Source of the DNA: Streptomyces tsukubensis
Lineage (GTDB): Bacteria; Actinomycetota; Actinomycetes; Streptomycetales; Streptomycetaceae
Direction: 5' to 3'
NCBI RefSeq assembly: GCF_003932715.1
Contig: NZ_CP020700.1
Location: 930,001 to 994,000, forward strand
DNA: 64,000 nt
The notes beneath the pieces were generated by a model. It was not told where the DNA came from. It searched no databases and was given only the letters and a program-made list of their open reading frames with translations. Position numbers and translations under genes: made by a program. How positions within the stretch are numbered: the stretch's first letter is position 1; each line of letters opens with the position of its first letter. This document shows, in pieces, positions 24,497 through 43,117 of this stretch.

Positions 24497-26041
24497 TTAC
24501 TCCTGCAAACACCAGTCGACGAAGGACGCGATGCTGGGGTCCACCCGGCCCTCCCCGTCGGCCACCGCGGCCGTACAGAAGAACCGCACCTCGTCGAACT
24601 CCAGGTCCATCGTCTTCACCAGATTCCGCAGCCCCAGCCCCTCGCACAGCCACTCCCGGGCCGTATCGCTGTGGTCCAGCCGCTCCGGCAGCAGCGCGGG
24701 CTGCCCGGCGAGCAGATCGGTCTTGCTGACGGCGACGGCCAGCCGCGCCCGGTCCAGCCGGGTGCCCATCGTGCGTACGGTCTGCACCGACCGTGCAAAG
24801 ACGTCCTCCGGATCGACCGTCGAGGCCAGGGTGCGGTCCACCTTCGGACCCTGCGGGTCCAGCCGGGTCCAGAAGGCGCCGACGGCCATCGGGTCGAGGA
24901 CGAAGACGAAGGTGCGGGCGGCCCGGGCATAGCGCAGCGCATCCGTCTCGTCCCGGTTGACGAACCGCTCGCCCGCGGTGTCGAAGACATGCACCAGCCG
25001 TTCGGCACGGCCGCTGCCCAGGACGAACGAATGGGCCCGGGGCAGCGTCTTCTGGGTGGGGCGGGTACGGCCCTGAATCGCCAGCACCTCGCGCAGGACC
25101 CGGTAGTTGCCGTCGGATTCGGCGTCCGCGAGCCGGATCGCCGGACCGCCGTTCCCGGCGGCGTTCTCCAGCGCCATCAGCATCGCCGCCATCAGCTGCG
25201 TCTTCCCCGCGGCCCGGCCGCCGATCAACGGCAGGATCAGCTCGGGCATATGCCCGGCGTCGGGGTTCATGGGCTTGCGGCAGTGGTCGTGCACGCAGTG
25301 GCCGCTCAGCCGGGCGTCCCTGCTCATCAGCATCAGCAGCGTCGGCAGGCGCTCCCCGCAGGCACAGCGGCGTCTGAAGAGCCCGAAGGTGCCCGGCCGG
25401 ATATCGGTGTGCCGGCGCCGGCAGGTCGCGCGGGGGCAGTCGTACTCCGGATACGGCACCCGCTCGAAGCAGCTCGGGCACAGCATGCCCCGGGGCAGCC
25501 CGCGGAGCACCATCATCGTCCGGTCGGCGGTGCGGAGCGCGCCCGCGGTCAGCCGGGCACCGCCCATCAGCAGGAAAACGCCGAGGGCGTGCAGCCCGAA
25601 CAGCAGCCCCAGCAGCGGGACCGCGAGGGCCGCACCGGCGGCGAGACCCAGGTGGAGGGTGAGGCCGTACGGCACCGAAACCGCCGGGTGGACGGAGGGC
25701 GCGGTGAACTGTTCCGCGGTGACCCGGCGGAAGGAGTCGGTGACCGTACGGACGTACATCCGGGCGCCCAGGGTGCGGAGTTGCCGCAGATCGCGGACCG
25801 CGGGGCCGTAGAAGTAGTTGCGGTGGGCCGATTCGTCGGCGGGGCGGTACGGCGGCACCGTCACGTACTCGGGGGTCCGCAGCCGCAGGACGCCGTTGAG
25901 GACCCGGGAGTACCGCCAGTGGACTTCACTGACGAAGGCGAGTCCGCGCAGGCCCGCGATCAGGGGGACGACGGACAGATAGAACATCAGCAGGCCCAGA
26001 TAGAGGGCGGGCACGACGACGAACATCACCACGGCTCCCAT
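24497..26041 (-). CDS. Double-GTPase 2-type TRAFAC GTPase with zinc ribbon and membrane segments
   Basis: Last gene of the conflict operon. The 514-residue protein has an N-terminal membrane segment (VVMFVVVPALYLGLLMFYLSVV), a hydrophobic pair around residues 130-165 (LTLHLGLAAGAALAVPLLGLLFG), a cysteine-rich ribbon (LCPSCFERVPYPEYDCPRATC, then RRRCACGE, HCVHDHC), and a GTPase domain: Walker A GGRAAGKTQLM, DTAGERF (G3) and SKTDLL (G4). The layout matches the family I know as DO-GTPase 2 in NTP-dependent conflict systems. GTP binding is well supported by motifs. Membrane location is predicted. It starts 6 bp after the GAP1 stop. Confidence 0.85.
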   Translation of the reverse strand: MGAVVMFVVVPALYLGLLMFYLSVVPLIAGLRGLAFVSEVHWRYSRVLNGVLRLRTPEYVTVPPYRPADESAHRNYFYGPAVRDLRQLRTLGARMYVRTVTDSFRRVTAEQFTAPSVHPAVSVPYGLTLHLGLAAGAALAVPLLGLLFGLHALGVFLLMGGARLTAGALRTADRTMMVLRGLPRGMLCPSCFERVPYPEYDCPRATCRRRHTDIRPGTFGLFRRRCACGERLPTLLMLMSRDARLSGHCVHDHCRKPMNPDAGHMPELILPLIGGRAAGKTQLMAAMLMALENAAGNGGPAIRLADAESDGNYRVLREVLAIQGRTRPTQKTLPRAHSFVLGSGRAERLVHVFDTAGERFVNRDETDALRYARAARTFVFVLDPMAVGAFWTRLDPQGPKVDRTLASTVDPEDVFARSVQTVRTMGTRLDRARLAVAVSKTDLLAGQPALLPERLDHSDTAREWLCEGLGLRNLVKTMDLEFDEVRFFCTAAVADGEGRVDPSIASFVDWCLQE

Positions 26042-26047
26042 GGCCGC

Positions 26048-28486
26048 TCACCTCTCTTCCCGGCCCGGATCGTCCGGTGTCCGTCGCCGGGTGATCCTGC
26101 GGACCAGCTTCTTCCCGGCGCCCAGGCGGCGCTCGGCGCACTTCAGATAGGCATCGGCGAGCGCGGAGTCGTAGGGGCGGACGGCACCGGCCAGCCGGTT
26201 CAGGTCGTCCGGCCGCCAACGGCCGGCGATATCGTGGCGCAGGGCCGTGATCAGCTCGAAGTGGGCCTGCGGCAGCGGGCACCGGGAGTCCATCGCGACG
26301 ACCCCGGTGACATGGCTGAACAGCACCTCGTCGACGGGTCCGCTGTCGGCCGCGGCCTCGCGCAGCGCGCGGAGATAGCCGTCCGTGAGGGAGAACCCGA
26401 ACTCCCCGATGTCGGTGCGCAGCCGGGCGTGGTCGGCGGGCAGCGCGAGGAGGGCGGGGATCAGCCGGTGGCGTTTCAGGGCGCGCGGCGCCGCCCAGGC
26501 GTCGGCCTGCGGGATCCGGAACGCGCGGGCGAGCGCGGTCGCCTCGGGTGCCTCGTGCAGGGCCCGGTCCAGGCCGAGGGTGGTTGCCACGCACTCCCGG
26601 GTGACCGGGCGCAGCCAGGCGGAGCGGCCCGGTGCGGCCAGTGCCTCGTAGAGCAGCAGACAGGACCGCAGGGCCTCTTCGTCGTGGATCTCCTGTTTGA
26701 CGGCGCGGTCGAACCACTCGCCGATCGCGTCGTCGGCCTGCTGTTCCGGGGGAAGCCGGCGGGCGATCTCGGTGGCTTCCTCGTAGGTCCAGGCCGGTGA
26801 GGCCTGCCGCCACAGGGCCCTGAGCAGTTCCCCGTCCGGCGAGGTCAGGCCGCGTACTGCCAGGATCCGGAAGAGCAGTTCGACCGTGCGGGCGGGTTCG
26901 CGCTCGGCCTGGGCCCGCCAGTAGTGCTCCAGGAGCCGGGGGCGCTCCCCGAGGTCGGATTCGCGCAGCAGGCTCGCGGGGAACTGGGCGAAGAGCTGCT
27001 CCTGGCCGTTCCGCCGGGCCAGCACCTCGTGGACGGCGGTCGCCAGTGCGGCTCTGAACTCCGGGAGGGTGTGGACGAGCTGTGCCGTTTCGGCGCGGAG
27101 CTCGGGGCCCGCGGCGGAGGAGCCGAGGAGGGTACGGGCCAGGTCCAGGCTCTGTGCGGCGAGCGGTTCGGGCGGCGGGGTGAGCCGGGCGCCCAGGGCC
27201 CACAGCAACAGCCGGACCCGGACGCGGGTGGTGGTGGCCTCGTCGAGCAGCCGCTGCCACAGGGCGGTGGCCCGTTCGCGTTCGGCGGGGTGGGTGATCG
27301 GTACGGGGCCGGCCGCGTTCTCCGCTCCGGTCGCGTAGGCGCGGATCCGGGACCGGTGGAGCCTGCCTTCGAGTTCCTGGTGGAGTGCGCTGTCTCCGCC
27401 CGCTTCGGCGGCTGCGCTCAGTGTCGCCAGTTGCCCGTCGTCCAGGTCCCGGTGGCGGTGGTGGATGTCGGCCGCCACCGCCGCCCGGCGCGTCCCGAGG
27501 TGGCCCGCGCCCGGCAGCCAGTCGATCACGGCCCGGACGTCGGTACCGGTCAGTTCGATGCCGCCCGCGGCCGCTGCCGCCGCCACGGGGGCGTGCCAGT
27601 CCCCGGGGTCCCGCTCCCGGCCGTCCGCGTACTCGGCGGTCCAGGACCAGACCGAGCGGACGGAGCCGACGCCGATCCCGGTCAGCAGCCGTACCAGATC
27701 GTGGACGGGTGCCGGTTCGGGGAAGCGGCCTGCGGAGAAGTCGAAGACGGTGTACGTCTCCTCGCCGTCGGGTCCGAAGTCGGGGTGCGCCTCGGGCACG
27801 GTGCCGATGAGGTGGAGCCGGCTGCGGGCGGGGCGCAGCAGGTAGGTGGCGAAGGACAGGGTGCGGGCCAGCGGGGGCGGCAGCAGGTAGGAGACGGCGG
27901 CGAACCAGTGGGCGATCCGGTCCGTCGTATCGTCGATCACCACCACCGAGCCGTCGTCCGCGAGTGCCGTGAACACGGCCGCCAGCAGGGCCGGGAGCTG
28001 TCCGGCGTCCGGGCGGCCGCGCAGGAAGTCGCGTACGGCGCGGGGGCTGAGCGGGCCGCGCGGCAGGGGTGCGGAGAGTTCGGGGAGTTCGGTGGAGTCG
28101 GCCACCCGGGCCGTCCACAGCGGCGAGTTCCACAGTTCGACGGCGAGCAGCCCGCCGCTGTCGGGGGTGAACTCGCCTTCCGTGTGCAGGGCGTGGGCGA
28201 AGTAGTTGCCGAATCTGCGGGCCGAGTCGCGGCCCGCGTACCGGACGCACAGCGTTGTCGTCCCCTGTCCGCCGGGGCTGTGGCAGAGGTTGACCGGGCA
28301 GCGGGCCAGTGTTTCCGGGGTGTCCGATTCGATCAGGGAGCGCGGGGGTTCGTATCCGGCGAGGCCCTCCACCCGGTGCCGGGTCTCCGCGGAGACCTGC
28401 TCGCTGACCGCGTTGAACTGGAAGCCGGAGGAGCCGCTGAGCCCTTGTTCGCAGGAGGTGTAGTACAGCTGCTGGAAGCTCCTCAT
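26048..28486 (-). CDS. GTPase-associated protein 1 (GAP1-N2 plus M/C domains)
   Basis: Predicted partner of the two GTPases. The 812-residue protein opens with MRSFQQLYYTSCEQGLSGSSGFQFNAVS-type sequence, the hallmark of GTPase-associated protein 1 (N-terminal type 2): LYYTSCEQGLSGSSGFQF. It continues with CHSPGGQG and NYFAHAL (about 85-105), the middle segment VVVIDDTTDRIAHWFAAVSYLLPP, then a long helical-repeat region (about 380-790) rich in Leu/Ala/Arg and a basic C-terminus (KKLVRRITRRRT). No enzyme motif is obvious. A scaffold or GTPase-regulator role is the literature inference. It overlaps the double-GTPase 1 stop as ATGA. Confidence 0.82.
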   Translation of the reverse strand: MRSFQQLYYTSCEQGLSGSSGFQFNAVSEQVSAETRHRVEGLAGYEPPRSLIESDTPETLARCPVNLCHSPGGQGTTTLCVRYAGRDSARRFGNYFAHALHTEGEFTPDSGGLLAVELWNSPLWTARVADSTELPELSAPLPRGPLSPRAVRDFLRGRPDAGQLPALLAAVFTALADDGSVVVIDDTTDRIAHWFAAVSYLLPPPLARTLSFATYLLRPARSRLHLIGTVPEAHPDFGPDGEETYTVFDFSAGRFPEPAPVHDLVRLLTGIGVGSVRSVWSWTAEYADGRERDPGDWHAPVAAAAAAGGIELTGTDVRAVIDWLPGAGHLGTRRAAVAADIHHRHRDLDDGQLATLSAAAEAGGDSALHQELEGRLHRSRIRAYATGAENAAGPVPITHPAERERATALWQRLLDEATTTRVRVRLLLWALGARLTPPPEPLAAQSLDLARTLLGSSAAGPELRAETAQLVHTLPEFRAALATAVHEVLARRNGQEQLFAQFPASLLRESDLGERPRLLEHYWRAQAEREPARTVELLFRILAVRGLTSPDGELLRALWRQASPAWTYEEATEIARRLPPEQQADDAIGEWFDRAVKQEIHDEEALRSCLLLYEALAAPGRSAWLRPVTRECVATTLGLDRALHEAPEATALARAFRIPQADAWAAPRALKRHRLIPALLALPADHARLRTDIGEFGFSLTDGYLRALREAAADSGPVDEVLFSHVTGVVAMDSRCPLPQAHFELITALRHDIAGRWRPDDLNRLAGAVRPYDSALADAYLKCAERRLGAGKKLVRRITRRRTPDDPGREER

Positions 28487-29670
28487 CCGCGGCCCGCCTT
28501 GGGCACCGAGCCGAATTCGGTGAGCAGCCACAGCAGGGGGTCCGCCACCCGGTAGGGCTGGATGCCGGTCGGGGCGACCCGGGAGTCGGGCGTGGCGCTG
28601 CGGCCGAGTGCGGAGACCCCGAAGTAGCGGTAGCGGGCGAAGGTGTTCTCCAGGGCCTGGTCGATGGGGACGCCGTCCCACTCCTTCAGCAGCCGGCGGA
28701 CCTCCTCGTGCACGCTGAGGCTGTCGCCGACGTCGAACCGGCCGCGGGCGGGGGCGTGGGCGCGCAGCGGGCTGCCGTTCTCCAGCAGATGCCAGAAGGC
28801 GTCCGTCTTGGAGAAGACCACCGCGAGCGGGGTGTCGACCTTCGCCGCCCGGCCGCCGTTCGCGGCCAGCAGCAGTCCGCTGACCCGGCTCAGTACGTTG
28901 ATCGGCGGGTCGATGCCGTCCATCCGGGGCAGCGCGGTGCCGGGGGCGGCGTGTTCCCGGGCGCCCGGCATCTGCAGGGGGTCCAGCAGCAGGACGATGC
29001 CGTCCGCGTTGGCCAGGTAGCGGGTGTTGAGTTCGACGCTCTCCCGGCTGTTGAAGTCCTCGCCCGCCGTGTCGAAGAACGACAGCACGGTGTGCTGCGG
29101 CCGCTCGCCGAACAGCCCTCTGCGGCGCAGCCCGAAGCGGAACACCAGCGGCTCGACCCGGTTGGCGTTGGTCGTCGCGGTCTGGGTGGGCGGGAACATC
29201 TGCCGGTCGCGGTAGAGCCGGTCCTCGTACTCCGAGCTGTAGCGGCGCATGGTGGTGTCGTCGAGGCCCATCATGGAGGCGCCGTACGCCTCGCCGACCC
29301 GGTTGCGCATCTCGTGCAGCAGTACGGTCATGTAGATCGTCTTGCCGGAGGACCGGGCACCGACCATGGCGATCAGCCGGTTGTCCACCATGCCGAACTG
29401 GACGGGCAGTTCGACGTGGCAGACGGGGCAGATGCGGTACGTGGTCTCGCCGTCGCAGTCCGGGCACGGGGCGGTCGGTCTGCGGCCGTCGGCGGTGAAG
29501 TCCGGGCCGACGTCGTGGGCGGGGCGGCGGCCGAACCGTTCGTCGAGGACCGGGTCCCGGCGCCGTCGGCACTGTTTGCGGGTGCGGCTGAGCCGGCTGT
29601 TGCAGCGGAAGCGGATCTCGCGCGCGGCGAAGGTCTCGTAGCAGTAGGGGCAGGTGAGGCGTTTGGCCAT
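28483..29670 (-). CDS. Double-GTPase 1-type TRAFAC GTPase with zinc ribbons
   Basis: The 395-residue protein begins MAKRLTCPYCYETF, a CxxC ribbon, with further cysteine pairs (CPDCDGETTYRICPVCHVEL). The GTPase domain follows: Walker A GARSSGKTIYM (about 105), DTAGEDF (G3) and FSKTDAF (G4). A proline- and glycine-containing insertion (PGAREHAAPGTALPRMDG) sits before the G4 strand. Soluble, unlike double-GTPase 2. The start at 29670 shares one base with the stop of the Hsp70-like gene (TGATG). Its pairing with a second GTPase and GAP1 is the defining triad of this class of conflict system. Confidence 0.85.
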   Translation of the reverse strand: MAKRLTCPYCYETFAAREIRFRCNSRLSRTRKQCRRRRDPVLDERFGRRPAHDVGPDFTADGRRPTAPCPDCDGETTYRICPVCHVELPVQFGMVDNRLIAMVGARSSGKTIYMTVLLHEMRNRVGEAYGASMMGLDDTTMRRYSSEYEDRLYRDRQMFPPTQTATTNANRVEPLVFRFGLRRRGLFGERPQHTVLSFFDTAGEDFNSRESVELNTRYLANADGIVLLLDPLQMPGAREHAAPGTALPRMDGIDPPINVLSRVSGLLLAANGGRAAKVDTPLAVVFSKTDAFWHLLENGSPLRAHAPARGRFDVGDSLSVHEEVRRLLKEWDGVPIDQALENTFARYRYFGVSALGRSATPDSRVAPTGIQPYRVADPLLWLLTEFGSVPKAGRG

Positions 29671-31340
29671 CAGGTCACTCGCAGCTTGTGCAGGGCCGTG
29701 GGGCGGATATCGGGATCGGAGTCGGCGGGCCGGGCCGGGAAGCAGACCAGCCAGGAGGGGCCTCGGCCGGCGGGGAGCGGGAATTGGACGGTGAGAGGGG
29801 TGCCGGCGGGAAGTCGCTGGGCGGGGACCTCGTGCAGGACGGTGCCGTCGGCCGTACTGGTGGGGCGGTAGCGGCCGACGCCGTGCACGATGCGGAGGTC
29901 GGGGAGGTCGCATCCGGTCCGGGCGGTGAAGGTGACGGTGGCGACCCGGGCGCCGGTGAGGCGGCGGCGGGCCGTGGGTTCGTAGTCGACGACGGGGGGT
30001 TCGGCCGGTACCCGGAGTCCGGCGGCGCCCTCGGTGTCGGCGGCGGGATCGGGGACGAGTGCCTCCACGGTGAGGGTGACGGCGCCCCGGCCGACGGGGA
30101 GGTCGAGGCCGCCGTCGTGTTCGTAGACGCGGCGGCGGCAGAGGATGTCGCCGTCGCGGGGCCCGCTGCCGGTTCCCGTGGTGTCCTCGCGGCGCCAGCG
30201 GACCCGGGCGGTGAGCGCGGACTCCGGCCAGGCCCAGAGGACGAGGAGGTGGTCGTCGCGGCGGACGGCCTGGAGCTGGGTCACGGGGACGGAGTACAGG
30301 GCGAACGGGGGCGCGGGCTCGGGTCCGGATCCGGCCTCCGCTTCAGGCCCGGTTTCGGCTTCGGGCCGGGGTCCGGGGGCGGTGGCGCCTTCGGGCCGGG
30401 GTCCGGGTCCGGGTTCGGGGGTGGCGGCGGGATCCGGGGCCGGTGCGGGGGTCGGCTCGGGGGGCGGTTCCGGTACGGGGGTCGGTGCGGGCCCGGGGGT
30501 CGGTGGGGCCGTTACGGGGTCGGGCCGCGGTTCCGCGCGCCGTTCCGGGGGCTCCTCCGCGGCGCCCGGTGGTTCGGGATCCGCCGGAGGAGGCGGCCAC
30601 GGGGCCGGTTCCGGGTCGTCGGCGAGTGCGGGGGGTGCGAAGTACGCCGTCGCGGGGGCGGTGCCCGTGGCGATACGGAGAAGGCCGAAGTCCGGCAGGG
30701 CGAGCAGGCCGTTGACGACGGCGAGTTCGGGTGCGGTGCAGCGGACCGTCAGGCCCTGTGCCGCAGGCAGGTTCTCGATGTCGGTACGGCGGGCGGGGTC
30801 GGTGTAGGGGGCGCCGGAGAGGAGAACGGCGTCCGGGGACGCCTCGGTCAGCTCCCCGGCGATCGCCGCCAGGCCCCGGTCGGCGCCCGGCCGCCCGGTG
30901 CGGGTGGAGACGATGCGTACGGTCAGATCGGGGGTGACGGCGAGAACCGTCAGTTCCAGGGTGTCCGGGTCCAGGTCGGCCACCAGGACCGTACGGTGGA
31001 CGCCTTCGTCGATCGCGCCGTAGTGCAGGGCCACCGCGACCGGGACCGGGACGATCCTGCTGACGCGCAGGCCCGCGTCCTCGGCGGCACGGCGCAGCCG
31101 GTCCTCGTCCTCGCGACCGGCGGACGCGGGGAGACCGAGCACCGCCTCCCGCTCCTGCCCGCTCTCCGGCTCCTGCTCCTGCTCCTGCTGCGTCTGCGCG
31201 GCGAGGATCAGGGCGAGGGCGTCCTCGGGACGGGCGATGCCGTCGGTCCGGTCCAGCTCCACGACCGTGACGGCGGTGCGGCCGTCCGGTCCGGGCCGGC
31301 CGACCCGGGCGGAGTGGTGGCCGATGCTGATGCCGAGCAT
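29670..31340 (-). CDS. Reduced Hsp70/actin-like ATPase with Pro-rich linker and beta-sandwich C-terminus
   Basis: The 556-residue protein has a compact actin/Hsp70-fold module (about 1-240): LGISIGHHSARVG (phosphate-1-like), LRRAAEDAGLRVSRIVPVPVAVALHYG (compare the Hsp70 EPTAAALAYG segment), LVADLDPDTLELTVLAV (phosphate-2-like) and DAVLLSGAPYTDP (adenosine-like). An approximately 120-residue Pro/Glu/Ala/Gly linker follows (about 255-375), then two beta-rich domains (PFALYSVPVTQLQAVRR to the end) like Fn3 or Ig modules. The canonical Hsp70 substrate-binding domain is missing. Start ATG 31340 lies 4 bases after the stop of the ClpB-like gene. A chaperone-like threshold sensor is inferred. Confidence 0.72.
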   Translation of the reverse strand: MLGISIGHHSARVGRPGPDGRTAVTVVELDRTDGIARPEDALALILAAQTQQEQEQEPESGQEREAVLGLPASAGREDEDRLRRAAEDAGLRVSRIVPVPVAVALHYGAIDEGVHRTVLVADLDPDTLELTVLAVTPDLTVRIVSTRTGRPGADRGLAAIAGELTEASPDAVLLSGAPYTDPARRTDIENLPAAQGLTVRCTAPELAVVNGLLALPDFGLLRIATGTAPATAYFAPPALADDPEPAPWPPPPADPEPPGAAEEPPERRAEPRPDPVTAPPTPGPAPTPVPEPPPEPTPAPAPDPAATPEPGPGPRPEGATAPGPRPEAETGPEAEAGSGPEPAPPFALYSVPVTQLQAVRRDDHLLVLWAWPESALTARVRWRREDTTGTGSGPRDGDILCRRRVYEHDGGLDLPVGRGAVTLTVEALVPDPAADTEGAAGLRVPAEPPVVDYEPTARRRLTGARVATVTFTARTGCDLPDLRIVHGVGRYRPTSTADGTVLHEVPAQRLPAGTPLTVQFPLPAGRGPSWLVCFPARPADSDPDIRPTALHKLRVT

Positions 31341-36645: not shown

Positions 36646-36649
36646 CCGG

Positions 36650-37432
36650 TCACCCCGCTTCGGCGAGGGCGCACAGGACGGTCAGATCGTCTCCGGTCCG
36701 GGCGGCCTCCGGCCCGGAGAGCAGCCGTCGCAGGGGTTCGGCGTCCCCGTGGTTCGCGCGGAGCGCGGCGGCGACGCCCTGGAAGAAGTGTTCGGCCGGT
36801 AAGGGGCCCGCTTCCGGCGGGAGTTGCCGGATCCGGGGGTGGTCGAGGGTGAGGGCGGCGCAGCCGTCGGTGGCGAGGAACACTCCGCCGAACTCCGGTT
36901 CCCAGACGGTGAAGGTACGGATGCGGAGGGCTGCTCCGGGAGAGGAGAGGAACGACACCGGGCCCGGGGGCTGCGGAAGCACCAGATGGCAGCGGCCGTC
37001 GCCGGTCAGAAGGGTGGCGAAGCCGTCGCCCGTCGACACGAAGGCGGTCCAGGGCGGGCAGACGACGGCCGCGGTGAGGGTGGCGGCGAGGGCGCCGGGG
37101 TCCTGTTCCGTTTCTGGTCCACACCGGCCGCCGCCCAGCAGCCCTGCCACGGCCCGCAGATAGTGGGCGACGATCCGCTGCCCCCGCTCCGCGGTCCACC
37201 GGGTCCAGGTCTCCGGCGCGGCGTCCGGGTCCGGTAAGTCCTCGGCCAGCAGCCGGCAGGCGGTGTCGACCGCGAGATGGGCGCCCAGGGCGCTGCGGTC
37301 GCGGCTGCTCGCGCCGTCGGACACCGCGAGTACGGCGGCTTCGCCCAGGTCGACCGCTTTGAACGCGTCCTGGCAGCCGCGCGCGCCGGCGAGATGGGCG
37401 GTGCCCTGGACGGAGGCGCCGGCGATGATCAC
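36650..37432 (-). CDS. PP2C-family protein phosphatase (contains two TTA codons)
   Basis: Predicted metal-dependent Ser/Thr phosphatase opposing the adjacent kinase. The 260-residue protein has ASVQGTAHLAGARGCQDAF, the metal Asp in VLAVSDGASSRDRSALGA, FVSTGDGFATLL, FLATDG (second metal Asp) and TGDDLTVLCAL at the end. The GTG start at 37432 overlaps the vWA stop (GTGA). Two in-frame TTA leucine codons occur (codons 66 and 211, at 37235-37237 and 36800-36802). TTA is rare in these genomes and read by the bldA tRNA, so production is probably developmentally timed. Confidence 0.87.
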   Translation of the reverse strand: MIIAGASVQGTAHLAGARGCQDAFKAVDLGEAAVLAVSDGASSRDRSALGAHLAVDTACRLLAEDLPDPDAAPETWTRWTAERGQRIVAHYLRAVAGLLGGGRCGPETEQDPGALAATLTAAVVCPPWTAFVSTGDGFATLLTGDGRCHLVLPQPPGPVSFLSSPGAALRIRTFTVWEPEFGGVFLATDGCAALTLDHPRIRQLPPEAGPLPAEHFFQGVAAALRANHGDAEPLRRLLSGPEAARTGDDLTVLCALAEAG

Positions 37433-38199
37433 CTGTGGTCCCTCTCCAGTCTGTCCATGCGCGCGAGCCGGGCGGCACGGTCGTTGACCTGCTGGTGGAT
37501 GAGGTCCGCCGCCTGGTCCGGGCTGCTGTCGTCGGTGCTCTGGAAGAGCAGGTCGAGGATCCGGCCGAAGTCCAGGCTCTCCAGGGGGGAGGTGGCCTTC
37601 GGTGCGATGACCCGCAGCATCGGCAGGTCGGCGCCGCGCACTCCGATGACCTGGAAGACCCACTCCCCCGCGGCCTCGCCCCGGCGGACCCGTTCCGCGG
37701 TCTCCGCCAGGGCCGCCGGGTCGAGGGGGCGGCCCCGGTCGTCGCTGGGGGCGCCGTCCGTGAGGACCCAGAGGAAGGGGCGCCGGACCGGTACCCGTTG
37801 CCGTTGCAGCGTGCGGCGGCGGGCGCGGGCCAGTTCGAGGGCCGCTTCCACGGCCTCCGTCAGCCGGGTCAGGCCCCCGGCGCGGAGCGTGGGCGGGCGC
37901 ATACCGTCGACGGGGACGAAGAGCCCGCCGGGGTCGGCGGACTCGACGGGGACCAGCCGGCCCGCCGCGGGGTCGTGGACGCGGACCGCCGAGTCGAAGG
38001 TGATGAGGCAGACCTCGACCCGGGTGCGGAGCCTCTCCTGGGCCCGGACTCCGTCGAACCACCCGGCGAGCGCGGCGTTCAGCTCGTCGATCCGCGGGTT
38101 CTCCTCGGGGCGGCCCATGGACGCCGAGGTGTCGAGGAGGAGGACGACGGGCTGCCGTTCGTCGTATCCCGTACCGAATCCGATACCGTCCGCCGTCAT
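37429..38199 (-). CDS. von Willebrand factor A domain protein (TerY-like)
   Basis: The 256-residue protein has a full MIDAS set: DTSASM (DxSxS, about residue 23), the Thr in GLTRLTEAV and the Asp in TDGAPSDD. ITFDSAVRV and FQVIGVRGADLPML belong to the same fold. No transmembrane or signal segment is present, so it is cytoplasmic. The ATG at 38199 overlaps the stop of the small upstream gene (ATGA). Genes of this kind pair with PP2C and kinase genes in TerY-P triads. Confidence 0.88.
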   Translation of the reverse strand: MTADGIGFGTGYDERQPVVLLLDTSASMGRPEENPRIDELNAALAGWFDGVRAQERLRTRVEVCLITFDSAVRVHDPAAGRLVPVESADPGGLFVPVDGMRPPTLRAGGLTRLTEAVEAALELARARRRTLQRQRVPVRRPFLWVLTDGAPSDDRGRPLDPAALAETAERVRRGEAAGEWVFQVIGVRGADLPMLRVIAPKATSPLESLDFGRILDLLFQSTDDSSPDQAADLIHQQVNDRAARLARMDRLERDHR

Positions 38200-38411
38200 C
38201 CGGCCGCCGCCCCGGTGTCGTCGGCGCGGGCCACCGGCCCGTGCCGTCCCGGGTCGTGCCCCACGGTGACGGCCGTGCCCGGCGGCAGGCCGGGCGGCTC
38301 GGTCTCCATGCGCAGCAGGACCCCGTCGACGAGTACGTACGCATCCGGAGCGGGCCAGGTCACCGTGCGACCGGAGCAGCCGTGCGCCCACTCAACCATC
38401 CCCCGGGTCAT
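38196..38411 (-). CDS. Small protein of unknown function, first gene of the conflict operon
   Basis: The 71-residue protein (MTRGMVEWAHGCSGRTVTWP at the start) is probably beta-rich, with VTWPAPDAYVLVDGVLLRMETEPPGLPPGTAVTV and an Ala/Asp-rich tail. I do not recognise a family. It is supported as real by the ATGA overlap with the vWA gene and by an apparent leaderless promoter that places transcription at its ATG (38411). An internal ATG at 38399 (MVEWAH) is possible. Confidence 0.62.
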   Translation of the reverse strand: MTRGMVEWAHGCSGRTVTWPAPDAYVLVDGVLLRMETEPPGLPPGTAVTVGHDPGRHGPVARADDTGAAAG

Positions 38412-38417
38412 GGGGCC

Positions 38418-38423
38418 ACGTTA
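38418..38423 (-). promoter_or_regulatory. Candidate -10 element of a leaderless 11-gene operon
   Basis: TAACGT on the minus strand ends 6 bases before the ATG at 38411, so transcription would start at or next to the ATG, as in leaderless actinobacterial messages. No Shine-Dalgarno sequence precedes this ATG. A -35 element is not clear. Confidence 0.4.
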
Positions 38424-38523
38424 GGTGAATCAGGCACTGTCATTCAGGGTCCTTGCAGAAATCGGTACTCCGCTGCGCGGCTGATCGCCGTGCGCGGGTC
38501 ACCCGGAGGGCATACACCCCCGA

Positions 38524-38541
38524 GTCGCCCGTCCGGGCGAC
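38524..38541 (-). terminator. Hairpin between the CHAT-macro operon and the GTPase operon
   Basis: GTCGCCCG and CGGGCGAC are exact complements with a 2-base centre (effectively a 7-bp stem with a 4-base loop), 12 bp after the macro gene stop. It probably separates the two transcription units. Confidence 0.5.
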
Positions 38542-38553
38542 CCGCCCCTTCAG

Positions 38554-39720
38554 TCAAGCGGACCGGCCGGTCGCCGACCGGTCGCGGGCCGGGCGGGTCC
38601 TGGCCGGGACGTCCTCGACCGCACGGGCCGCCGCCTGGGTGCGGACGGCGAAGTGCACGTCCCAGCGGGCGCCGCGGGCCAGTTCGGCCTCGACGGCGCT
38701 CCAGACGGCGGCCGCGCTGACCCGGTAGGGAAGTCCGCCGCGGCCGGAGCCGAGGAGGGTGAAGCAGACGGAGCGCAGCGGCGGGGCGTACCGGTCGTGC
38801 TCCTCGGCCAGCAGCGCGAGGGCGCGCGAGGTGACCCGGGTGATGTCGGCGGGCAGCACGTCGTAGTCGTTGGTGCCGGCCCGGGGTACGGCGACGGCCG
38901 CATGGTAGATACGCCGTACGCCGTAGGCGGCGAGGGCGCCCGAGCCGGTGGGCGCCACGGTGCCGGGGAGCACCGGGCGTCCCGCGGTGGCGTGCCGCTC
39001 CGTCCAGGTGCGGAGTTCGTCGTGGACCGGGTCGTCCAGCAGATCGCCGGTGACCCCGCGGACGGAGGCGGCCCGGCGCAGGGATGCGGAGACCGAGGAC
39101 TTGAACGGTTCGGGGAGGGCGAAGTAGGTGTTGGCGGGGGCGACCACCACGTCCACGTCCCGCAGCAGGTCGACGGGGTGGACATGGAGGGTGAGGCGCA
39201 CGGTGCGGTCGCCGGCCAGGACGTCCACGGACCGGTGGCTGTCCCCCGGCGGTCCGGTTCCGTCGGATCCGTCGGGCCGGTCGGGGCCGTCGGAGTCCGC
39301 CAACTCCACGATGTGCTCGGCGACCTGCTCCAGGACCATCACTTCATGGTGCTTGCGGAAGCGTTCCTCGCTGACCCGGTAGACCTCGGCGGCACGGGCC
39401 CGGCGGGAGGAGGCGGGCCAGTCCCGGGTGCCCTGGGAGAGCCCGAGGGTGTATTCGGCGGCGGTCCGCAGGGTGCCCGCGTCGAGCCGTTCGACCGCGC
39501 GCCGGAGCAGTGCTTCCACGGCGCCTTCGCGGGTGCGCGCGGGGGCCAGCGAGGCGGCTGCCGATTCCAGGGCGGGCAGCTCCCGGCCGCGTAACCTCAG
39601 CAGTCCCGCCCGCCGGACCGCCTGGAGCTCTATCAGGACCGACGCGAGGTCGAGGGAAGGTGGCGCCATGCGGCCCACGATGGCACCGCGGGCGGGCCGC
39701 CAGCAAGCGCGCGGGGTCAT
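38554..39720 (-). CDS. Macro-domain protein (contains a TTA codon)
   Basis: Predicted ADP-ribose or nucleotide-derivative binding protein. The 388-residue protein has an N-terminal helical domain (about 19-150; LIELQAVRRAGLLRLRGREL), then a macro-domain-like module: LHVHPVDLLRDVDVVVAPANTYF (the PAN motif), VRGVTGDLLDD, GTVAPTGSGALAAYGVRRIYHAAVAVPRAG (the glycine-rich loop and Hxx motif), CFTLLGSGRGGLPYRVS. The usual catalytic or binding Asn is in PANTYF. Start uncertain: ATG 39720, 4 bp after the CHAT stop, or ATG 39669. A TTA codon lies at 39592-39594, in frame (codon 43 from 39720). Hydrolase activity is not proven. Confidence 0.78.
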   Translation of the reverse strand: MTPRACWRPARGAIVGRMAPPSLDLASVLIELQAVRRAGLLRLRGRELPALESAAASLAPARTREGAVEALLRRAVERLDAGTLRTAAEYTLGLSQGTRDWPASSRRARAAEVYRVSEERFRKHHEVMVLEQVAEHIVELADSDGPDRPDGSDGTGPPGDSHRSVDVLAGDRTVRLTLHVHPVDLLRDVDVVVAPANTYFALPEPFKSSVSASLRRAASVRGVTGDLLDDPVHDELRTWTERHATAGRPVLPGTVAPTGSGALAAYGVRRIYHAAVAVPRAGTNDYDVLPADITRVTSRALALLAEEHDRYAPPLRSVCFTLLGSGRGGLPYRVSAAAVWSAVEAELARGARWDVHFAVRTQAAARAVEDVPARTRPARDRSATGRSA

Positions 39721-39724
39721 GCGG

Positions 39725-42700
39725 TCATGCGGTCGTCCTGCCCGGGCCGGGGTGGCCCTGGTGGATGAACGCGGCCCAGTGGACGGGCCGTGAGAGGTCG
39801 GGGCGGGAGCTGTCCCTCCTCAGGTCGGCGTCGAGCAGACCGGGGTCCTCGCGGTCGGGGTCGAGCATCCACAGTTGGGCGGCCCGCAGGGCGTCGACGG
39901 GGGCGAGCCCGGCCCGCACCTGCCGGTGGAAGACCGCCATCAGCAGGGAAGCTGCGGAGTCGTAGGTGGTCCATCGCGACCCGACGACATCGCGTGCGCC
40001 GCCCGAGACGAACGCCGTCGTCAGGGTGAGGGCCTCGTCGTGGTCGCGGTTGCTCAGATCGGTCTGGCAGCCGCTCAGGACGATCAGCGGGCCGTCGGAG
40101 GCGCCGTGTCCGGCGGGCTGGGGGCGGTCGAGGAGTCCGGTCACGGTGAGCAGTCCGGGGTCAGCTCCGGAGGCGTCGGACGCGAGGTGCAGCGCGGATT
40201 CCGTCGGCTGGGTGCCCGCCATGCCGTGGGTGGCGAGATGGACCACGGAGTGGTCCTGGGCGAGCAGCGACAGGAGTTCCCCGGGGGTTCCGGCGGGCAC
40301 CGAGTCCTTGGGGAGCCGGTAGAACTCGCCGTACAGCCGCGCCCCCGGATAGCAGGCGTTGCGCAGCTCCAGGACCTCCAACTCGGCGTAGGTCAGCGTC
40401 ATTCCGGGGTCGGCCACCAGGGCCGGGGCGGAGACGGGGTTGCGCGGTGCGCGTTTCACCGTGCTCAGGAACTGGCTGCCGGAGGCGGCGTAGCTGATCA
40501 CCAGGGACTGGCAGACATAAGCGTGGGGCGCGCCTGCGGGGAAGCGGGCGGCGTGCCAGGGCACGATCCCGAGGCGGCCGCAGGGGACCAGGACGATCCG
40601 GGGGGTACGGCGGTCCGCCGCGTCGCCCGGGAGGTAGGTGTCCAGCCCGGCCAGGACCTGGACGAAGGCCTCGTACGCCCAGTCGCACAGCTCGGACAGG
40701 GCGTCCTCCCAGGCCTGTTCGGCCGCGGGGCCGCCCGTGGGGCGTTCTCTGACGGCGTCCAGATAGCGTTCCAGGGGGCCGCTCGCGGTCCGGGCGAGCA
40801 TGGGCAGGGCGGCCAGGCCGATGCCGATCTCGGGGCCGATGGCCAGCAGCATCCCCGGGGCGTCGCCGTCGCTGCCGGGGACCAGATAGATCAGGGCGTC
40901 GGCACCGGCTTCGGCCACACCGGCGGCGATCTCGCCCGGGGTGGGGGTGTTCAGCAGGCCGCCCCGCTCGCGGTAGCCGAGGGCCTCCAGGGCCTGGCGG
41001 CGCAGGGTGCTGGGGAGTTCGGCGGGCAGCTCCCCGGCGTCGGTGGCGCCGGACTCCCGCCAGGCGGCGGCGAGCCGGGGGTGGCCGCGCTCCTCCAGCA
41101 GATCGGGTACGGCCCGGGAGGTGGCCGCCGTCTGGAGCACCAGTGCCCGGCCCAGCTCCAGGGCGGCGACGGCGTCGTCCACCCTGTGGTGGAAGGCCGC
41201 CCACAGCGCGGCCCGGATTCCCAGGGAGGCTCCCTGGCGGGCGGTCGTCAGGCGGTGTTCGGCGCCCTGCTGGAGGAGGACGTCGGCGGCGAGGGTGGTC
41301 AGGGCTTCGCCCGCCGCGTCGCAGACGGCGCCCGCGTCGGATTCACTGGATTCACCGGACTCACCGGACTCACCGGACTCACGGTGCCAGCGGACGCGGT
41401 AGCTCTCGGCGAGGGTCCACAGGGACCGGGCGGCGACGCGCGGTGCGCGGCCCTGCCGAATGTGCTCGCGGAGCCGTTCCAGCACGGTGATGACGGCGTC
41501 CAGGTCCTCGGGGTCCTTGGTGAGGTCGTAGCGGATGCCGAGGCTGTTTGCGGCGGTGTGCAGTTCGGCGGCGGAGGCGTCCGGCGGCGGTACCTCACGC
41601 TCCGGGATCCGCTCCGTGTCCTCGGTGAGCAGGGCGCGCAGGGCGGTGAGGCCGGGGACCATGGCCTCCAGTTCGCCGGCCCCGATCGGGAGGCCGCTGC
41701 TCGCGGCGGCCGTCCTCGCCTCGTCCAGGTCTGCGAGGCCGCTCAGGATCAGCTCCTTGTCCTGGGTGAAGCGGCCGACCGCGAGCCGGGCCATGGCCCG
41801 GCCGGCCCGGACGAAGGAGAGGAAGTCGTGGTCGTCGGGCACGGTGGCGGCCAGCTCCTCGGCCCGGCGCAGCAGGGCGCCGAGCCGCGCCGTGTCCTCG
41901 GCCTGGAGGGCCGTGCGGACCTCGGTGACCAGGCCCATCATGTCCGCCATCACTTCCACACCGCCGGCCATGGGGAACGAACTCCCCGACAGGCTCCGCA
42001 GATAGTCGGTGACGACCCGGCTGTGCGCGGACCCGAGTGCTTGGTCCTGGAGGGTGCCGCCGGCGCCTTCGCTCAGGTCGAGCAGCAGGGCCATGTTCCC
42101 CCGGAGGGCGTCCCTGCCGGGCATGCCCTCCGGCAGCCCGTCCAGCGCTTCGCGCAACCGCCTCAGCTGCTGGTTGAGTGCGGCCGGATCGCCGCCGCCG
42201 GCATGGTCGACGAAGTCGACGGACGTGGTGTTGACGGCCTGTACGGCGGCGAGGAGCCGGCGGAAGTCGTCGGCGTTCAGGGGCGGGGCGGGGGTGTCGC
42301 CGGGGGCCGCGGAGCCGGTACCGGCCGTCGTCGAGGGGCCCGGGGCACCGGCCCCCGGCCGGTCGGCGGCGTCCGGGGCCGGGCGCTTGCCACCGGTGTC
42401 AGGGCCCGGACCGTTCTCCGGCTTCGGCCCGCCGGTGACCGTCGACAGCCAGTCGCCCATCATCGACCGCATCCGTTCGGTGCCGGGCAGCCCGTCGTCG
42501 GGGACGAGGCTCAGGAACATGTCGTTGAGCGTCGCAGCCGAGGGGTCGGTGTAGACGTCGCGCACCCGGCGCAGATGCGCCAGGGTCTCCGGCGGCAGCG
42601 GCAAATCGGCCGCCTCGGCCATCAGCTCCTGCATCTCGGCGGCGAAGGCGGTCATCCCCGCCGGCCCCTCCCGCATGATCATGTCGAAGAGGGCCGTCGC

Positions 42701-43117
42701 GTCCGGCTCCGGCGCCAACCCGCCCAGCGACTCCTGCAGCGGCATCGCGTGCGTCAGCAGGAACAGCGCGGCCCACCGCCGGTCCTCGGCGGAGGCCGTG
42801 GCCCCGGCCTCCGTGGCCGGGTCCCGGACTTCCCGCAGCAGGCCGTGCGCCCGCTTCCGGTCCTCGGGCGTACCGCCCCCGGCGGCGTGCCGCAGCGTCA
42901 GCGCACCGGCCAGCCACAAGGTCACCGAGCTGCGCAGCTCCGGTGCCTGGTCCAGCAGTCGGGACAGCTCGTCGAGTTCGGCGACGGATGCGTCGTGGGC
43001 ACGGGTGGCCGTGGCGACCAGCCCCGCCTCCGGCAGCAGCGCCCTCGCCCGGCCTACGGCCTCGACGGCCCAGGCCCGTACCGCCAGGACACCACCGCTC
43101 TCCGCTTCGTCCCCCAT
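39725..43117 (-). CDS. CHAT-domain caspase-like protease with helical-repeat N-terminus
   Basis: The 1130-residue protein has a long Ala/Leu-rich helical region (about 1-800, TPR-like repeats such as AARSLWTLAESYR and ALELGRALVLQTAATSR) broken by a Pro/Gly/Ala linker (about 235-275), and a C-terminal CHAT protease domain: His in VVHLATHGMAGTQPTESALHL and Cys in PLIVLSGCQTDLSNRDHDEALTL, then AFVSGGARDVVGSRWTTYDSAASLLMAVFHR. Both catalytic residues are present, so an active protease is expected. The ATG at 43117 has GAGGAG upstream. The SGESGESGESSESD tract around residue 590 is a short repeat. It is the likely effector or signalling arm of the island, which is inference from CHAT use in conflict systems. 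Confidence 0.87.
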   Translation of the reverse strand: MGDEAESGGVLAVRAWAVEAVGRARALLPEAGLVATATRAHDASVAELDELSRLLDQAPELRSSVTLWLAGALTLRHAAGGGTPEDRKRAHGLLREVRDPATEAGATASAEDRRWAALFLLTHAMPLQESLGGLAPEPDATALFDMIMREGPAGMTAFAAEMQELMAEAADLPLPPETLAHLRRVRDVYTDPSAATLNDMFLSLVPDDGLPGTERMRSMMGDWLSTVTGGPKPENGPGPDTGGKRPAPDAADRPGAGAPGPSTTAGTGSAAPGDTPAPPLNADDFRRLLAAVQAVNTTSVDFVDHAGGGDPAALNQQLRRLREALDGLPEGMPGRDALRGNMALLLDLSEGAGGTLQDQALGSAHSRVVTDYLRSLSGSSFPMAGGVEVMADMMGLVTEVRTALQAEDTARLGALLRRAEELAATVPDDHDFLSFVRAGRAMARLAVGRFTQDKELILSGLADLDEARTAAASSGLPIGAGELEAMVPGLTALRALLTEDTERIPEREVPPPDASAAELHTAANSLGIRYDLTKDPEDLDAVITVLERLREHIRQGRAPRVAARSLWTLAESYRVRWHRESGESGESGESSESDAGAVCDAAGEALTTLAADVLLQQGAEHRLTTARQGASLGIRAALWAAFHHRVDDAVAALELGRALVLQTAATSRAVPDLLEERGHPRLAAAWRESGATDAGELPAELPSTLRRQALEALGYRERGGLLNTPTPGEIAAGVAEAGADALIYLVPGSDGDAPGMLLAIGPEIGIGLAALPMLARTASGPLERYLDAVRERPTGGPAAEQAWEDALSELCDWAYEAFVQVLAGLDTYLPGDAADRRTPRIVLVPCGRLGIVPWHAARFPAGAPHAYVCQSLVISYAASGSQFLSTVKRAPRNPVSAPALVADPGMTLTYAELEVLELRNACYPGARLYGEFYRLPKDSVPAGTPGELLSLLAQDHSVVHLATHGMAGTQPTESALHLASDASGADPGLLTVTGLLDRPQPAGHGASDGPLIVLSGCQTDLSNRDHDEALTLTTAFVSGGARDVVGSRWTTYDSAASLLMAVFHRQVRAGLAPVDALRAAQLWMLDPDREDPGLLDADLRRDSSRPDLSRPVHWAAFIHQGHPGPGRTTA

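What the first reader, a model, noticed from the sequence alone, without database searches (positions are those of the whole stretch)
24497..43117. A 13-gene NTP-dependent conflict island: double GTPases, GAP1, Hsp70-like, ClpB-like, vWA-PP2C-kinase, radical SAM, macro and CHAT protease
Eleven co-oriented genes (38411 to 24497) mostly overlap by ATGA/GTGA, share one base or abut within a few bases, and so are one transcription unit. Two upstream genes (CHAT protease and macro-domain protein) follow the same direction behind a terminator-like hairpin. I know double-GTPases with GAP1, vWA-PP2C-kinase triads and CHAT effectors as parts of described NTP-dependent immunity systems (families worked on by the Aravind group), but this whole set with a radical SAM activase, a macro protein and a reduced Hsp70 is not one I can name. 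It reads as a threshold sensor (chaperones, GTPases) coupled to a proteolytic effector (CHAT).
Basis: partly seen in the sequence, partly recalled or inferred. Interest (0 to 1): 0.88.

Follow-up and report, generated by a model that had tools for sequence, protein, structure and literature searches.

The report
GTPase–radical-SAM–chaperone island with CHAT protease
This Streptomyces stretch carries an unusually constant 11-gene molecular switch (GTPases, kinase and phosphatase, radical-SAM enzyme, chaperone-like ATPase) tied to a protease cassette that in most relatives also carries a predicted NAD-destroying toxin, so it looks like a new variant of a predicted bacterial self-defence system.

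Summary
In detail: all 13 genes are present at the stated places and co-oriented. A 14th, a small membrane protein (43255-43887), belongs to the island. The 11-gene order is kept in 15 of 20 other Streptomyces loci; four others are cut by contig ends or an N run, and the fifth (L068) lacks PP2C and is cut. It is a GAP1-N2 DO-GTPase system with a kinase-PP2C-vWA triad (Kaur et al. 2020). [quoted passage not shown]

The radical-SAM/AAA+/coiled-coil part also occurs in two genomes without GAP1-N2. CHAT lies upstream in 18 of 19 loci. In 16 of 19 a putative antitoxin and a RES-domain gene lie beside it; the window lacks that pair. In 150 Streptomyces genomes, 12 of 14 CHAT-antitoxin-RES cassettes lie within 11 kb of such a radical-SAM gene, of three kinds (0.04 expected).

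Best reading: an NTP-dependent switch controlling a CHAT protease effector. Immunity itself is untested. Verdict: new variant of a known kind.

The parts
43255..43887 (-). TMcc: 210-aa protein, one N-terminal hydrophobic segment then a charged, helix-like region; 14th gene of the island
   Evidence: Gene; tblastn hits upstream of CHAT in 10 other type A loci, two of them (L004, L005) partial at a stretch edge; not found in L060, L068 or L029; not testable in L008, L010, L011, L013 and L067, whose stretch ends in or at CHAT; hydrophobic 3-21; no Pfam
39725..43117 (-). CHAT protease (1130 aa)
   Evidence: PF12770 4.4e-42; catalytic His and Cys columns kept in 21 of 21 sequences
38554..39720 (-). 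Macro-domain-like protein (388 aa) with a helical N-terminal region; conserved start may be 39669
   Evidence: PF01661 0.0089, below cut-off; [AS]PxN, PGTVxxT and LGSGRGGL motifs kept in 15 of 15 sequences
38412..38553 (-). 142-base intergenic stretch with a hairpin, upstream of the 11-gene operon
   Evidence: MFE -72.2 kcal/mol over 38412-38560, z -3.11; no T run
38196..38411 (-). s71: 71-aa small protein, first gene of the operon
   Evidence: 13-sequence alignment, 22 invariant columns; no confident family (NfeD 0.012, below cut-off)
37429..38199 (-). Standalone vWA protein (256 aa), MIDAS DxSxS present
   Evidence: PF13519 2.6e-5 / PF00092 6.4e-5, both just below cut-off; motif in 21 of 21
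36650..37432 (-). PP2C phosphatase (260 aa, GTG start)
   Evidence: PF13672 3.2e-28; five Asp columns kept in 20 of 20
35593..36645 (-). Protein kinase (350 aa) with C-terminal CxxC
   Evidence: PF00069 3.8e-9; Lys, Asp, Asn, Asp and CxxC kept in 21 of 21
34952..35596 (-). NrdG-like radical-SAM enzyme (214 aa), CPLRCTGC
   Evidence: PF13353 1.1e-30; TIGR02491 94.9 bits, below its 126.1 cut-off; CxxxCxxC and GGEP in 21 of 21
33534..34955 (-). Coiled-coil protein (473 aa), N-terminus MSGSPKYS
   Evidence: AF2 mean pLDDT 85.8; of 109 homologues 91 begin MSGSP[KM]YS and 11 a close variant; 7 are fragments or are annotated from a later start
31345..33537 (-). ClpB-D2-like AAA+ ATPase (730 aa) with a distinct N-terminal half without a recognisable Walker A
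   Evidence: PF07724 6e-48; matches the ClpB second ATPase domain only, residues ~397-719; Walker A/B in 19 of 20 sequences, the 20th (L010) cut
29670..31340 (-). Reduced Hsp70 ATPase domain plus C-terminal beta domains (556 aa), candidate FNIII component
28483..29670 (-). DO-GTPase A (395 aa) with N-terminal zinc-ribbon-like CxxC pairs
   Evidence: PF19993 8.2e-10; G1, G3, G4 residues kept in 16 of 16; CxxC at 7, 69, 81
26048..28486 (-). GAP1 (812 aa): N2, M and C domains
   Evidence: PF20013 4e-38, PF20014 1.3e-23, PF20052 8.1e-75 (scanned as the longer open frame 26048-29572)
24497..26041 (-). DO-GTPase B (514 aa) with four N-terminal hydrophobic segments, last gene
   Evidence: PF19993 3.8e-12; segments at 1-38 and 126-164; G motifs kept wherever the stretch covers them (13 of 17 for G1 and G3, 14 of 17 for G4; the rest are cut)

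Best explanation
The island is an NTP-dependent, membrane-linked switch that controls a caspase-like (CHAT) effector protease. Shown: gene content, order, conservation, kept catalytic residues, and the recurrent partnership with CHAT and, in relatives, with an antitoxin-like gene and a RES-domain gene. Inferred, step by step: (1) the Hsp70/beta-domain protein, GAP1 and the two DO-GTPases (one with membrane segments) sense an invader or envelope insult and set a first threshold by GTP hydrolysis. (2) The kinase and PP2C set a reversible phosphorylation state, and vWA binds a peptide of the assembly. (3) The ClpB-like AAA+ remodels the coiled-coil scaffold, which the radical-SAM enzyme modifies, making assembly slow and hard to trigger by accident. 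(4) The assembled state activates CHAT. (5) In most relatives CHAT then removes the putative antitoxin and frees RES, which destroys NAD+; the macro protein handles the ADP-ribose product. In this genome the island lacks the antitoxin/RES pair, so its output is CHAT proteolysis alone or action on the second CHAT-antitoxin-RES cassette about 36 kb from the island.
For: 11-gene order kept in 15 of 20 other type A loci, four of the rest cut. CHAT upstream in 18 of 19 loci, ANT+RES in 16 of 19, macro in 15 of 19 (window). The 19th locus for CHAT, L029, has a convergent CHAT beside DOGB. Catalytic residues kept: CHAT 21 of 21, kinase 21 of 21, PP2C 20 of 20, DOGA 16 of 16, rSAM 21 of 21. Outer flanks of 7 other genomes mostly differ while the unit stays whole. 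CHAT-ANT-RES cassettes lie within 11 kb of an rSAM gene in 12 of 14 cases, 0.04 expected. RES = PF08808 in the three relatives scanned. MbcT (a RES-type toxin, recalled) is an NAD+ phosphorylase giving ADP-ribose-1''-phosphate (PMC8883491, passages). Family precedent for the threshold idea: PMC7159879 (sections 24 and 29).
Against: No PADLOC model matches GAP1, the GTPases, Hsp70-like, rSAM, PP2C, macro or CHAT. ANT has no Pfam match, so 'antitoxin' rests on position and a recalled motif. The window itself lacks ANT and RES, as does L068. L068 also lacks PP2C between vWA and kinase, so not every core gene is indispensable. Half of the 24 rSAM places in 150 genomes have no CHAT-ANT-RES cassette nearby. 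The N-terminal MSGSPKYS of the coiled-coil protein runs into a predicted strand, so it may serve folding and not modification. Type B, C and D loci work without GAP1 beside them, so step (1) cannot be general. CHAT-to-ANT cleavage is pure inference.
Confidence: 0.45

Rival explanations
1. A physiological switch, not immunity: an envelope, proteostasis or development regulator of hyphal growth, in which CHAT makes a limited processing cut and no cell dies.
For: All 11 named loci are Streptomyces, and the CC homologues with a source name that names an organism are Streptomyces or Kitasatospora. One GTPase has four N-terminal hydrophobic segments and TMcc one. A DO-GTPase near psp genes is described as predicted for membrane stress (PMC11237479, passage). 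The window's island lacks the RES gene.
Against: Patchy presence: 15 of 392 genus genomes have an rSAM hit at E<=1e-40, two of them type B. Different chromosomal surroundings and linkage to a RES family gene in 16 of 19 loci fit a conflict role better than housekeeping.
Confidence: 0.25
2. Two unrelated neighbours: the 11-gene operon and a hitch-hiking CHAT/toxin-antitoxin cassette that merely settles beside it.
For: A 142-base gap and hairpin separate them. The cassette also stands alone: L101 (own genome) and L105/L138. L029 has the operon without the upstream cassette. 12 of 24 rSAM places have no CHAT-ANT-RES nearby.
Against: 18 of 19 loci keep CHAT upstream. The cassette is beside three different kinds of rSAM/AAA+ system, 12 of 14 against 0.04 expected. 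Even L029 has a different CHAT beside DOGB.
Confidence: 0.2
3. The radical-SAM enzyme matures the 71-aa protein (s71) into a modified peptide effector, as predicted for radical-SAM enzymes of other conflict systems.
For: Peptide-modifying radical-SAM enzymes are predicted for VMAP and FtsH ternary systems (PMC7159879 section 24). s71 is the first gene and has 22 invariant columns.
Against: s71 shows no obvious leader/core pattern, and its invariant columns lie in its first three quarters. The enzyme here is NrdG-like, with no SPASM domain match in Pfam. In type C and D loci the rSAM sits with coiled-coil genes and the s71 profile gave no hit.
Confidence: 0.1

Closest known systems
GAP1-N2-type DO-GTPase systems, third theme (kinase + PP2C + standalone vWA), Kaur, Burroughs, Iyer, Aravind 2020, PMC7159879 (section 29 read whole)
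   Same: GAP1-N2/M/C, a DO-GTPase with N-terminal zinc ribbons, a second GTPase with N-terminal TM segments, a kinase with a CxxC tail and kept catalytic residues, PP2C with kept ligands, a standalone vWA, actinobacterial host
   Different: Adds an NrdG-like radical-SAM enzyme, a ClpB-D2-like AAA+, a coiled-coil protein, s71, and a near-constant CHAT(-antitoxin-RES-macro) cassette. An Hsp70 domain occurs together with the kinase triad, although the paper calls its themes non-overlapping
GAP1-N2 second theme (Hsp70/GrpE), same paper
   Same: Hsp70-domain gene in the GAP1-N2 neighbourhood
   Different: No GrpE or DnaJ seen in the operon. The Hsp70 is a half-size ATPase domain fused to beta domains. 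L034 and L035 in the same genus, which look like theme 2 (a full-looking DnaK-type gene beside the GTPases; read by eye), differ clearly
FtsH-ternary and VMAP-ternary vWA-MoxR systems with radical-SAM peptide processing, same paper (section 24 read whole; section 21 passage)
   Same: vWA + AAA+ + radical SAM in a threshold design
   Different: The AAA+ is ClpB-D2-like, not MoxR; the radical-SAM enzyme is NrdG-like, not SPASM or Memo-Ammecr1 related; no metallopeptidase in the island
TerY-P triad (vWA, PP2C, kinase) of tellurium-resistance-type systems (recalled; only a search listing seen)
   Same: The three genes vWA, PP2C and kinase side by side
   Different: No Ter gene found in the island; membership was not tested
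MbcTA-type RES toxin-antitoxin systems (PMC8883491 passages; PMC7291234 abstract start in listing)
   Same: RES-domain gene next to a putative antitoxin, in relatives
   Different: A CHAT protease gene directly precedes the pair, and the antitoxin-like protein matches no Pfam model

Membership tests
GAP1-N2 DO-GTPase system (Kaur 2020) | GAP1 protein with N2, M and C domains | tested here: met
   All three Pfam domains far above cut-off
GAP1-N2 DO-GTPase system (Kaur 2020) | DO-GTPase with two N-terminal zinc ribbons | tested here: met
   PF19993 39.2 bits against 27; CxxC at 7, 69, 81 of DOGA; the metal itself is not tested
GAP1-N2 DO-GTPase system (Kaur 2020) | Second GTPase with four N-terminal TM helices and one C-terminal TM | tested here: inconclusive
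   Four N-terminal hydrophobic segments found, no C-terminal one; simple hydropathy only
GAP1-N2 DO-GTPase system (Kaur 2020) | FNIII-repeat component | tested here: inconclusive
   Beta strands predicted through 349-547 of the Hsp70-like protein, two domains by my reading; no Pfam fn3 hit; the structure matches listed cover the Hsp70 part
GAP1-N2 third theme | Active kinase (often with zinc ribbon), active PP2C and standalone vWA in adjacent genes | tested here: met
   only one CxxC in the kinase tail; activity inferred from kept residues; vWA Pfam hits just below cut-off
GAP1-N2 third theme | Does not overlap with the Hsp70 theme | tested here: not met
   An Hsp70-domain gene is in the same operon, without GrpE
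Anaerobic RNR activase NrdG (TIGR02491) | Score over the curated cut-off, and an NrdD partner in the genome | tested here: not met
   94.9 against 126.1 bits; no PF13597 hit in the genome, while the control rings in 6 of 14
Glycyl-radical-enzyme activase | A glycyl-radical domain partner | tested here: not met
   No PF01228 hit in the genome; control rings in 3 of 14
ClpB chaperone (TIGR03346) | Full-length two-ATPase-domain ClpB score | tested here: not met
   243 against 1232 bits; only the second ATPase domain matches
CHAT peptidase | CHAT domain with His/Cys dyad | tested here: met
   PF12770 144.9 bits; dyad columns H and C in 21 of 21
RES/MbcTA-type toxin-antitoxin in the island | RES-domain toxin | tested here: not met
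   Absent from the window's island (CHAT and macro 4 bases apart); the genome's one RES hit is outside the window; present in 16 of 19 loci
RES/MbcTA-type toxin-antitoxin in relatives | Xre/MbcA-type antitoxin | tested here: inconclusive
   No Pfam match for ANT, full or C-terminal part
Catalogued anti-phage systems (PADLOC-DB 2.0.0) | Models match the core proteins | tested here: not met
   10 proteins scanned: 8 without a hit; CLP matches PDC-M37B (3e-30) and DolB, the kinase matches PD-T4-6 and mad6, through the ATPase or kinase domain. CC, vWA, s71 and TMcc were not scanned
Any anti-phage system | Protection from phage | not testable with these tools
   Needs a strain experiment

The most novel reading that the evidence does not exclude
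The radical-SAM enzyme, AAA+ ATPase and coiled-coil protein are the core of an undescribed family of actinobacterial switches with interchangeable front ends: GAP1/GTPase plus kinase-PP2C-vWA (type A), kinase-PP2C-vWA alone (B), FHA-kinase (C), or vWA with a CbxX-like AAA (D). Their shared output is a CHAT protease that removes an antitoxin to release an NAD+-destroying RES toxin, with a macro protein handling the ADP-ribose product. Radical-SAM chemistry would then be part of arming a bacterial cell-death switch.
Probability: 0.4. Interest if true: 0.85.

Novelty: new variant of a known kind. Interest (0 to 1): 0.72.

Why it matters
The GTPase/GAP1 systems of multicellular bacteria were predicted from sequence, and my searches (listings, with two of the papers looked into) turned up no experiment on them. 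This island gives a compact unit with kept active sites and a near-constant partner protease, so the 'threshold then proteolytic effector' idea becomes directly testable. The relatives add a concrete output (a CHAT gene next to a putative antitoxin and a RES gene) that recurs beside three different switch types. If CHAT cuts the antitoxin, this would be a bacterial counterpart of a caspase-like protease releasing a death effector. It would also raise the question of what a radical-SAM enzyme does in such a switch.

Tried and rejected
Rejected: (1) coiled-coil C-terminal domain = DUF1257 (Ycf35-like), suggested by type E neighbours. hhalign gave probability 1.9% for A against DUF1257, and A against the type C coiled coil was also not significant (0.6%). 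A against B was clear (E 1e-20); A against D is weak (53%). So homology of the coiled-coil proteins is shown for A and B only. (2) A glycyl radical on the N-terminal Gly of MSGSPKYS: two homologues have Ser or Asn there (MSSSPKYT, MSNSPKYT). (3) Named promoter or terminator in the macro-s71 gap: none found; the upstream alignment shows no strong shared element. (4) Solved relatives of GAP1, CHAT and macro by sequence: none at the thresholds used. (5) Fold of the coiled-coil protein: no PDB match at E<=1e-3. (6) The VIA-align list for the Hsp70-like model covered mainly residues 7-228, so the beta domains remain barely tested. (7) DefensePredictor paper: none of the five terms searched occurs in its main text.

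Limits: type B to E labels come from 2 type B loci, 12 class loci and the Streptomyces cassette loci, read partly by eye, with Pfam checks on chosen proteins only. A gene in type D that looked Hsp70-like by eye (L126:9164-10567) matched no Pfam family, and the Hsp70 of L069 scored just below cut-off (20.3 against 20.6). L068 is called type A only by its radical-SAM score. The gene caller used on relatives is a home-made GC-frame method, so some starts are wrong (for example CC in L008). The dN/dS values are single-pair Nei-Gojobori estimates. In one search one of the two GAP1-N2 places in G056 was not fetched, and some GAP1-N2 loci are short contigs. My notes are superseded in two points: the second cassette lies about 16 kb past the window end and 36 kb from the island (one search says 37 kb past the window end), and the type A count includes the incomplete L068.
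Full report
WHAT IS THERE. The window lies in an 8.02-Mb genome at contig C1:930001-994000; the named relatives of its coiled-coil protein are Streptomyces. All 13 genes of the finding are real. Frame-specific GC and start lists give, on the minus strand, CHAT (39725-43117), a macro-like protein (38554-39720), and then s71 (38196-38411), vWA (37429-38199), PP2C (36650-37432), kinase (35593-36645), radical SAM (34952-35596), coiled coil or CC (33534-34955), ClpB-like AAA+ or CLP (31345-33537), reduced Hsp70 or HSP (29670-31340), DO-GTPase A (28483-29670), GAP1 (26048-28486) and DO-GTPase B (24497-26041). Inside this 11-gene run six junctions overlap by 4 bases, one shares a base and three have gaps of 4-6 bases.

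CONSERVATION. A scan of species genomes with CC gave 11 named Streptomyces loci, L003-L013. GAP1-N2 was found in 44 of 150 genus genomes; among the neighbourhoods fetched for them, only this genome, G088, G091 and G138 have the window's kind of operon, which agrees with the radical-SAM search of 150 genus genomes. The radical-SAM profile (A1) found 15 of 392 genus genomes at E<=1e-40, two of which (G125, G280) are type B. Counting each locus once, there are 20 type A loci besides the window. Fifteen hold all 11 genes in the same order (L066 has its last gene at the edge of the stretch; the whole gene is in L090). L006, L009, L010 and L012 are cut by contig ends or a run of N. L068 is different: its 8,960-base contig shows CHAT, vWA, kinase and radical SAM, no PP2C between vWA and kinase, and no s71 hit, with the rest unseen. 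Catalytic residues are kept throughout: CHAT His/Cys in 21 of 21, kinase in 21 of 21, PP2C in 20 of 20, DOGA G motifs in 16 of 16, radical-SAM cysteines in 21 of 21 and vWA MIDAS in 21 of 21; these counts include the type B loci where the family was found there. dN/dS of the window against L004 is 0.17 to 0.52 for the 13 genes. The flanks of seven other genomes were compared: the sister pair G088/G138 shares both flanks, the window and G365 share two upstream genes, and the others (G323, G303, G335, G091) share nothing at 50% identity outside the island and its CHAT genes. So the island travels or is kept as a unit.

THE EFFECTOR CASSETTE. Upstream of the operon, relatives carry CHAT, a protein of about 240 aa (ANT), a RES-domain protein and the macro protein. 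RES is PF08808 in the three scanned (6.6e-18 in L004); ANT matches no Pfam model. Among 19 type A loci with that side visible, window included, CHAT is present in 18, ANT+RES in 16 and macro in 15 (window). L003 and L007 lack macro, L068 has CHAT only, and L029 has none of the four upstream but a convergent, different CHAT next to DOGB, with a caspase-domain gene beyond two further genes. The window has CHAT and macro 4 bases apart and neither ANT nor RES between them; since most relatives have the pair there, loss is the simpler reading. The same genome has a second CHAT-ANT-RES cassette at C1:1009918-about 1015000, about 36 kb from the island and 16 kb past the window end; over 810 aligned residues its CHAT is 46% identical to the island's.

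TEST OF THE LINK. I searched 150 genus genomes with the RES profile A7 (built from three type A RES proteins and the own genome's): 25 places in 20 genomes. In 14 of 25 a CHAT gene directly precedes ANT-RES; six others have macro-ANT-RES without CHAT upstream; the remaining five have other or unseen surroundings. The radical-SAM profile gave 24 places in 21 of 150 genus genomes at E<=1e-15. Twelve of the 14 CHAT-ANT-RES cassettes lie within 11 kb of such a radical-SAM gene; 0.04 are expected if cassettes fall at random in the same genomes. The two exceptions are this genome's second cassette (45 kb from the radical-SAM gene) and G033:C10 (L105, L127, L138). Seen the other way, 12 of 24 radical-SAM places have such a cassette, so half do not. 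The radical-SAM neighbours are of three kinds: type A (2), type D with vWA, coiled coil and a CbxX-like AAA (2), and type C with kinase, coiled-coil-like gene, CLP-like AAA+ and FHA (8) (Pfam on chosen examples; the rest by eye).

AN OLDER CORE WITHOUT GTPASES. In L069 and L070 the genes vWA-PP2C-kinase-rSAM-CC-CLP stand without GAP1 or DO-GTPases, and the GAP1-N2 search finds nothing in either genome (0 of 2). Their CC proteins begin MSGSPK[YF]S and are homologous to type A CC (hhalign E 1e-20). Beyond the genus, 13 of 394 class genomes have a hit at E<=1e-25 (two of the 13 are of the own genus, the own genome among them). The 12 loci fetched from the other 11 genomes all have an AAA+ gene in the same gene cluster: CLP-like in seven, CbxX-like in three, and another AAA with DUF2997 (and, in L081, DUF1257) in two; the AAA of L081 is by eye. 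I name these types A to E for this report only. Homology of the coiled-coil proteins across all types is not shown.

COMPARISON WITH WHAT IS KNOWN. Kaur et al. 2020 (PMC7159879; outline, sections 24 and 29 whole, passages) describe GAP1-N2 systems with a kinase-PP2C-vWA theme in about 10% of cases, restricted to actinobacteria, and a separate Hsp70/GrpE theme. The window meets the core definition and theme 3, and breaks their non-overlap of themes. Their section 29 mentions neither radical SAM nor ClpB for this type, and a coiled coil only for firmicute tubulin proteins; 'CHAT' occurs 0 times in the main text, though caspase-superfamily peptidases are named as effectors of other systems. Figures and source data were not seen. 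Searches for DO-GTPase or GAP1 terms gave, besides Kaur et al., PMC11237479 with one passing mention (passage read), PMC8998981 (one occurrence, not opened) and papers on other GAP1 or GTPase topics. A search for radical SAM with vWA, PP2C and AAA+ gave only Kaur et al., and a search for CHAT with RES and antitoxin gave three papers that I did not open. So 'not in print' holds only for those searches in an open-licence library.

MECHANISM AND DOUBTS. The best-supported design is a two-level switch (GTPases with GAP1 and the Hsp70-like sensor; then kinase/PP2C/vWA with the AAA+/coiled-coil/radical-SAM part) that turns on CHAT. Where ANT and RES are present, CHAT cutting ANT would free an NAD+-destroying toxin. 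MbcT, recalled to be of the RES type, makes ADP-ribose-1''-phosphate from NAD+, and macrodomain proteins hydrolyse the related ADP-ribose cyclic phosphate (PMC8883491, passages), which gives the macro gene a sensible place. Shown: content, order, conservation, kept active sites and non-random linkage. Inferred: every functional step. Immunity is unproven, and a physiological switch is the main rival.

SCORES. Interest 0.72: a well-defined variant of a predicted immunity family with an unexpected enzyme and a testable effector. Novelty: new variant of a known kind. The bolder reading, a distinct radical-SAM/AAA+/coiled-coil switch family with a shared CHAT-antitoxin-RES output, is given as the novel case at probability 0.4.

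Noticed in passing
G000:C1:1009918-1015000 (L098, L139), outside the window: Second CHAT-antitoxin-like-RES cassette in the same genome, about 36 kb from the island, with no rSAM hit in the stretches around it; its CHAT is 46% identical to the island's.
   Followed up: partly
L087:1416-4643 and L089:8456-11815: In G303 and G335 a second, oppositely oriented CHAT gene (1148 and 1121 bits) lies beyond the small membrane gene; the two are about 70% identical to each other. L068 also has a second, inverted CHAT-like gene at its contig end.
   Followed up: partly
L094:451-7862: Beside the type A operon of G091, which lacks the upstream cassette, lie a different CHAT gene and a caspase-domain gene (PF00656), as if the effector had been swapped.
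   Followed up: no
L112-L117: Order macro-ANT-RES, in five of the six followed by a gene with a weak CHAT-protein match: the same parts in another order, in other Streptomyces genomes.
   Followed up: no
L068: CHAT-vWA-kinase-rSAM without PP2C (vWA and kinase 64 bases apart) on a short contig: a possible variant of the operon.
   Followed up: no
L072, L073, L075: A DUF4407 membrane protein (checked by Pfam in L072), rSAM, coiled coil starting MSG[RV]K and a CbxX-like AAA form a compact cluster in other actinobacterial families; L072 also has a divergent macro homologue nearby.
   Followed up: partly
L074, L081: rSAM next to DUF2997 and an AAA gene, with DUF1257 in L081: resembles the cyanobacterial/plastid ycf35-ycf46 gene set (names recalled).
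   Followed up: partly
Control genome Corynebacterium glutamicum: The GAP1-N2 family search rings in this non-filamentous control genome.
   Followed up: no
window 20874-24323: Subtilisin-like protease gene (PF00082) directly downstream of the operon, same strand; no counterpart at 50% identity in the flanks of the seven genomes compared.
   Followed up: partly
window 48318-52961: Two further large genes on the minus strand; the first is a Ser/Thr kinase with a periplasmic-binding-type domain, the second looks like a kinase by eye.
   Followed up: no
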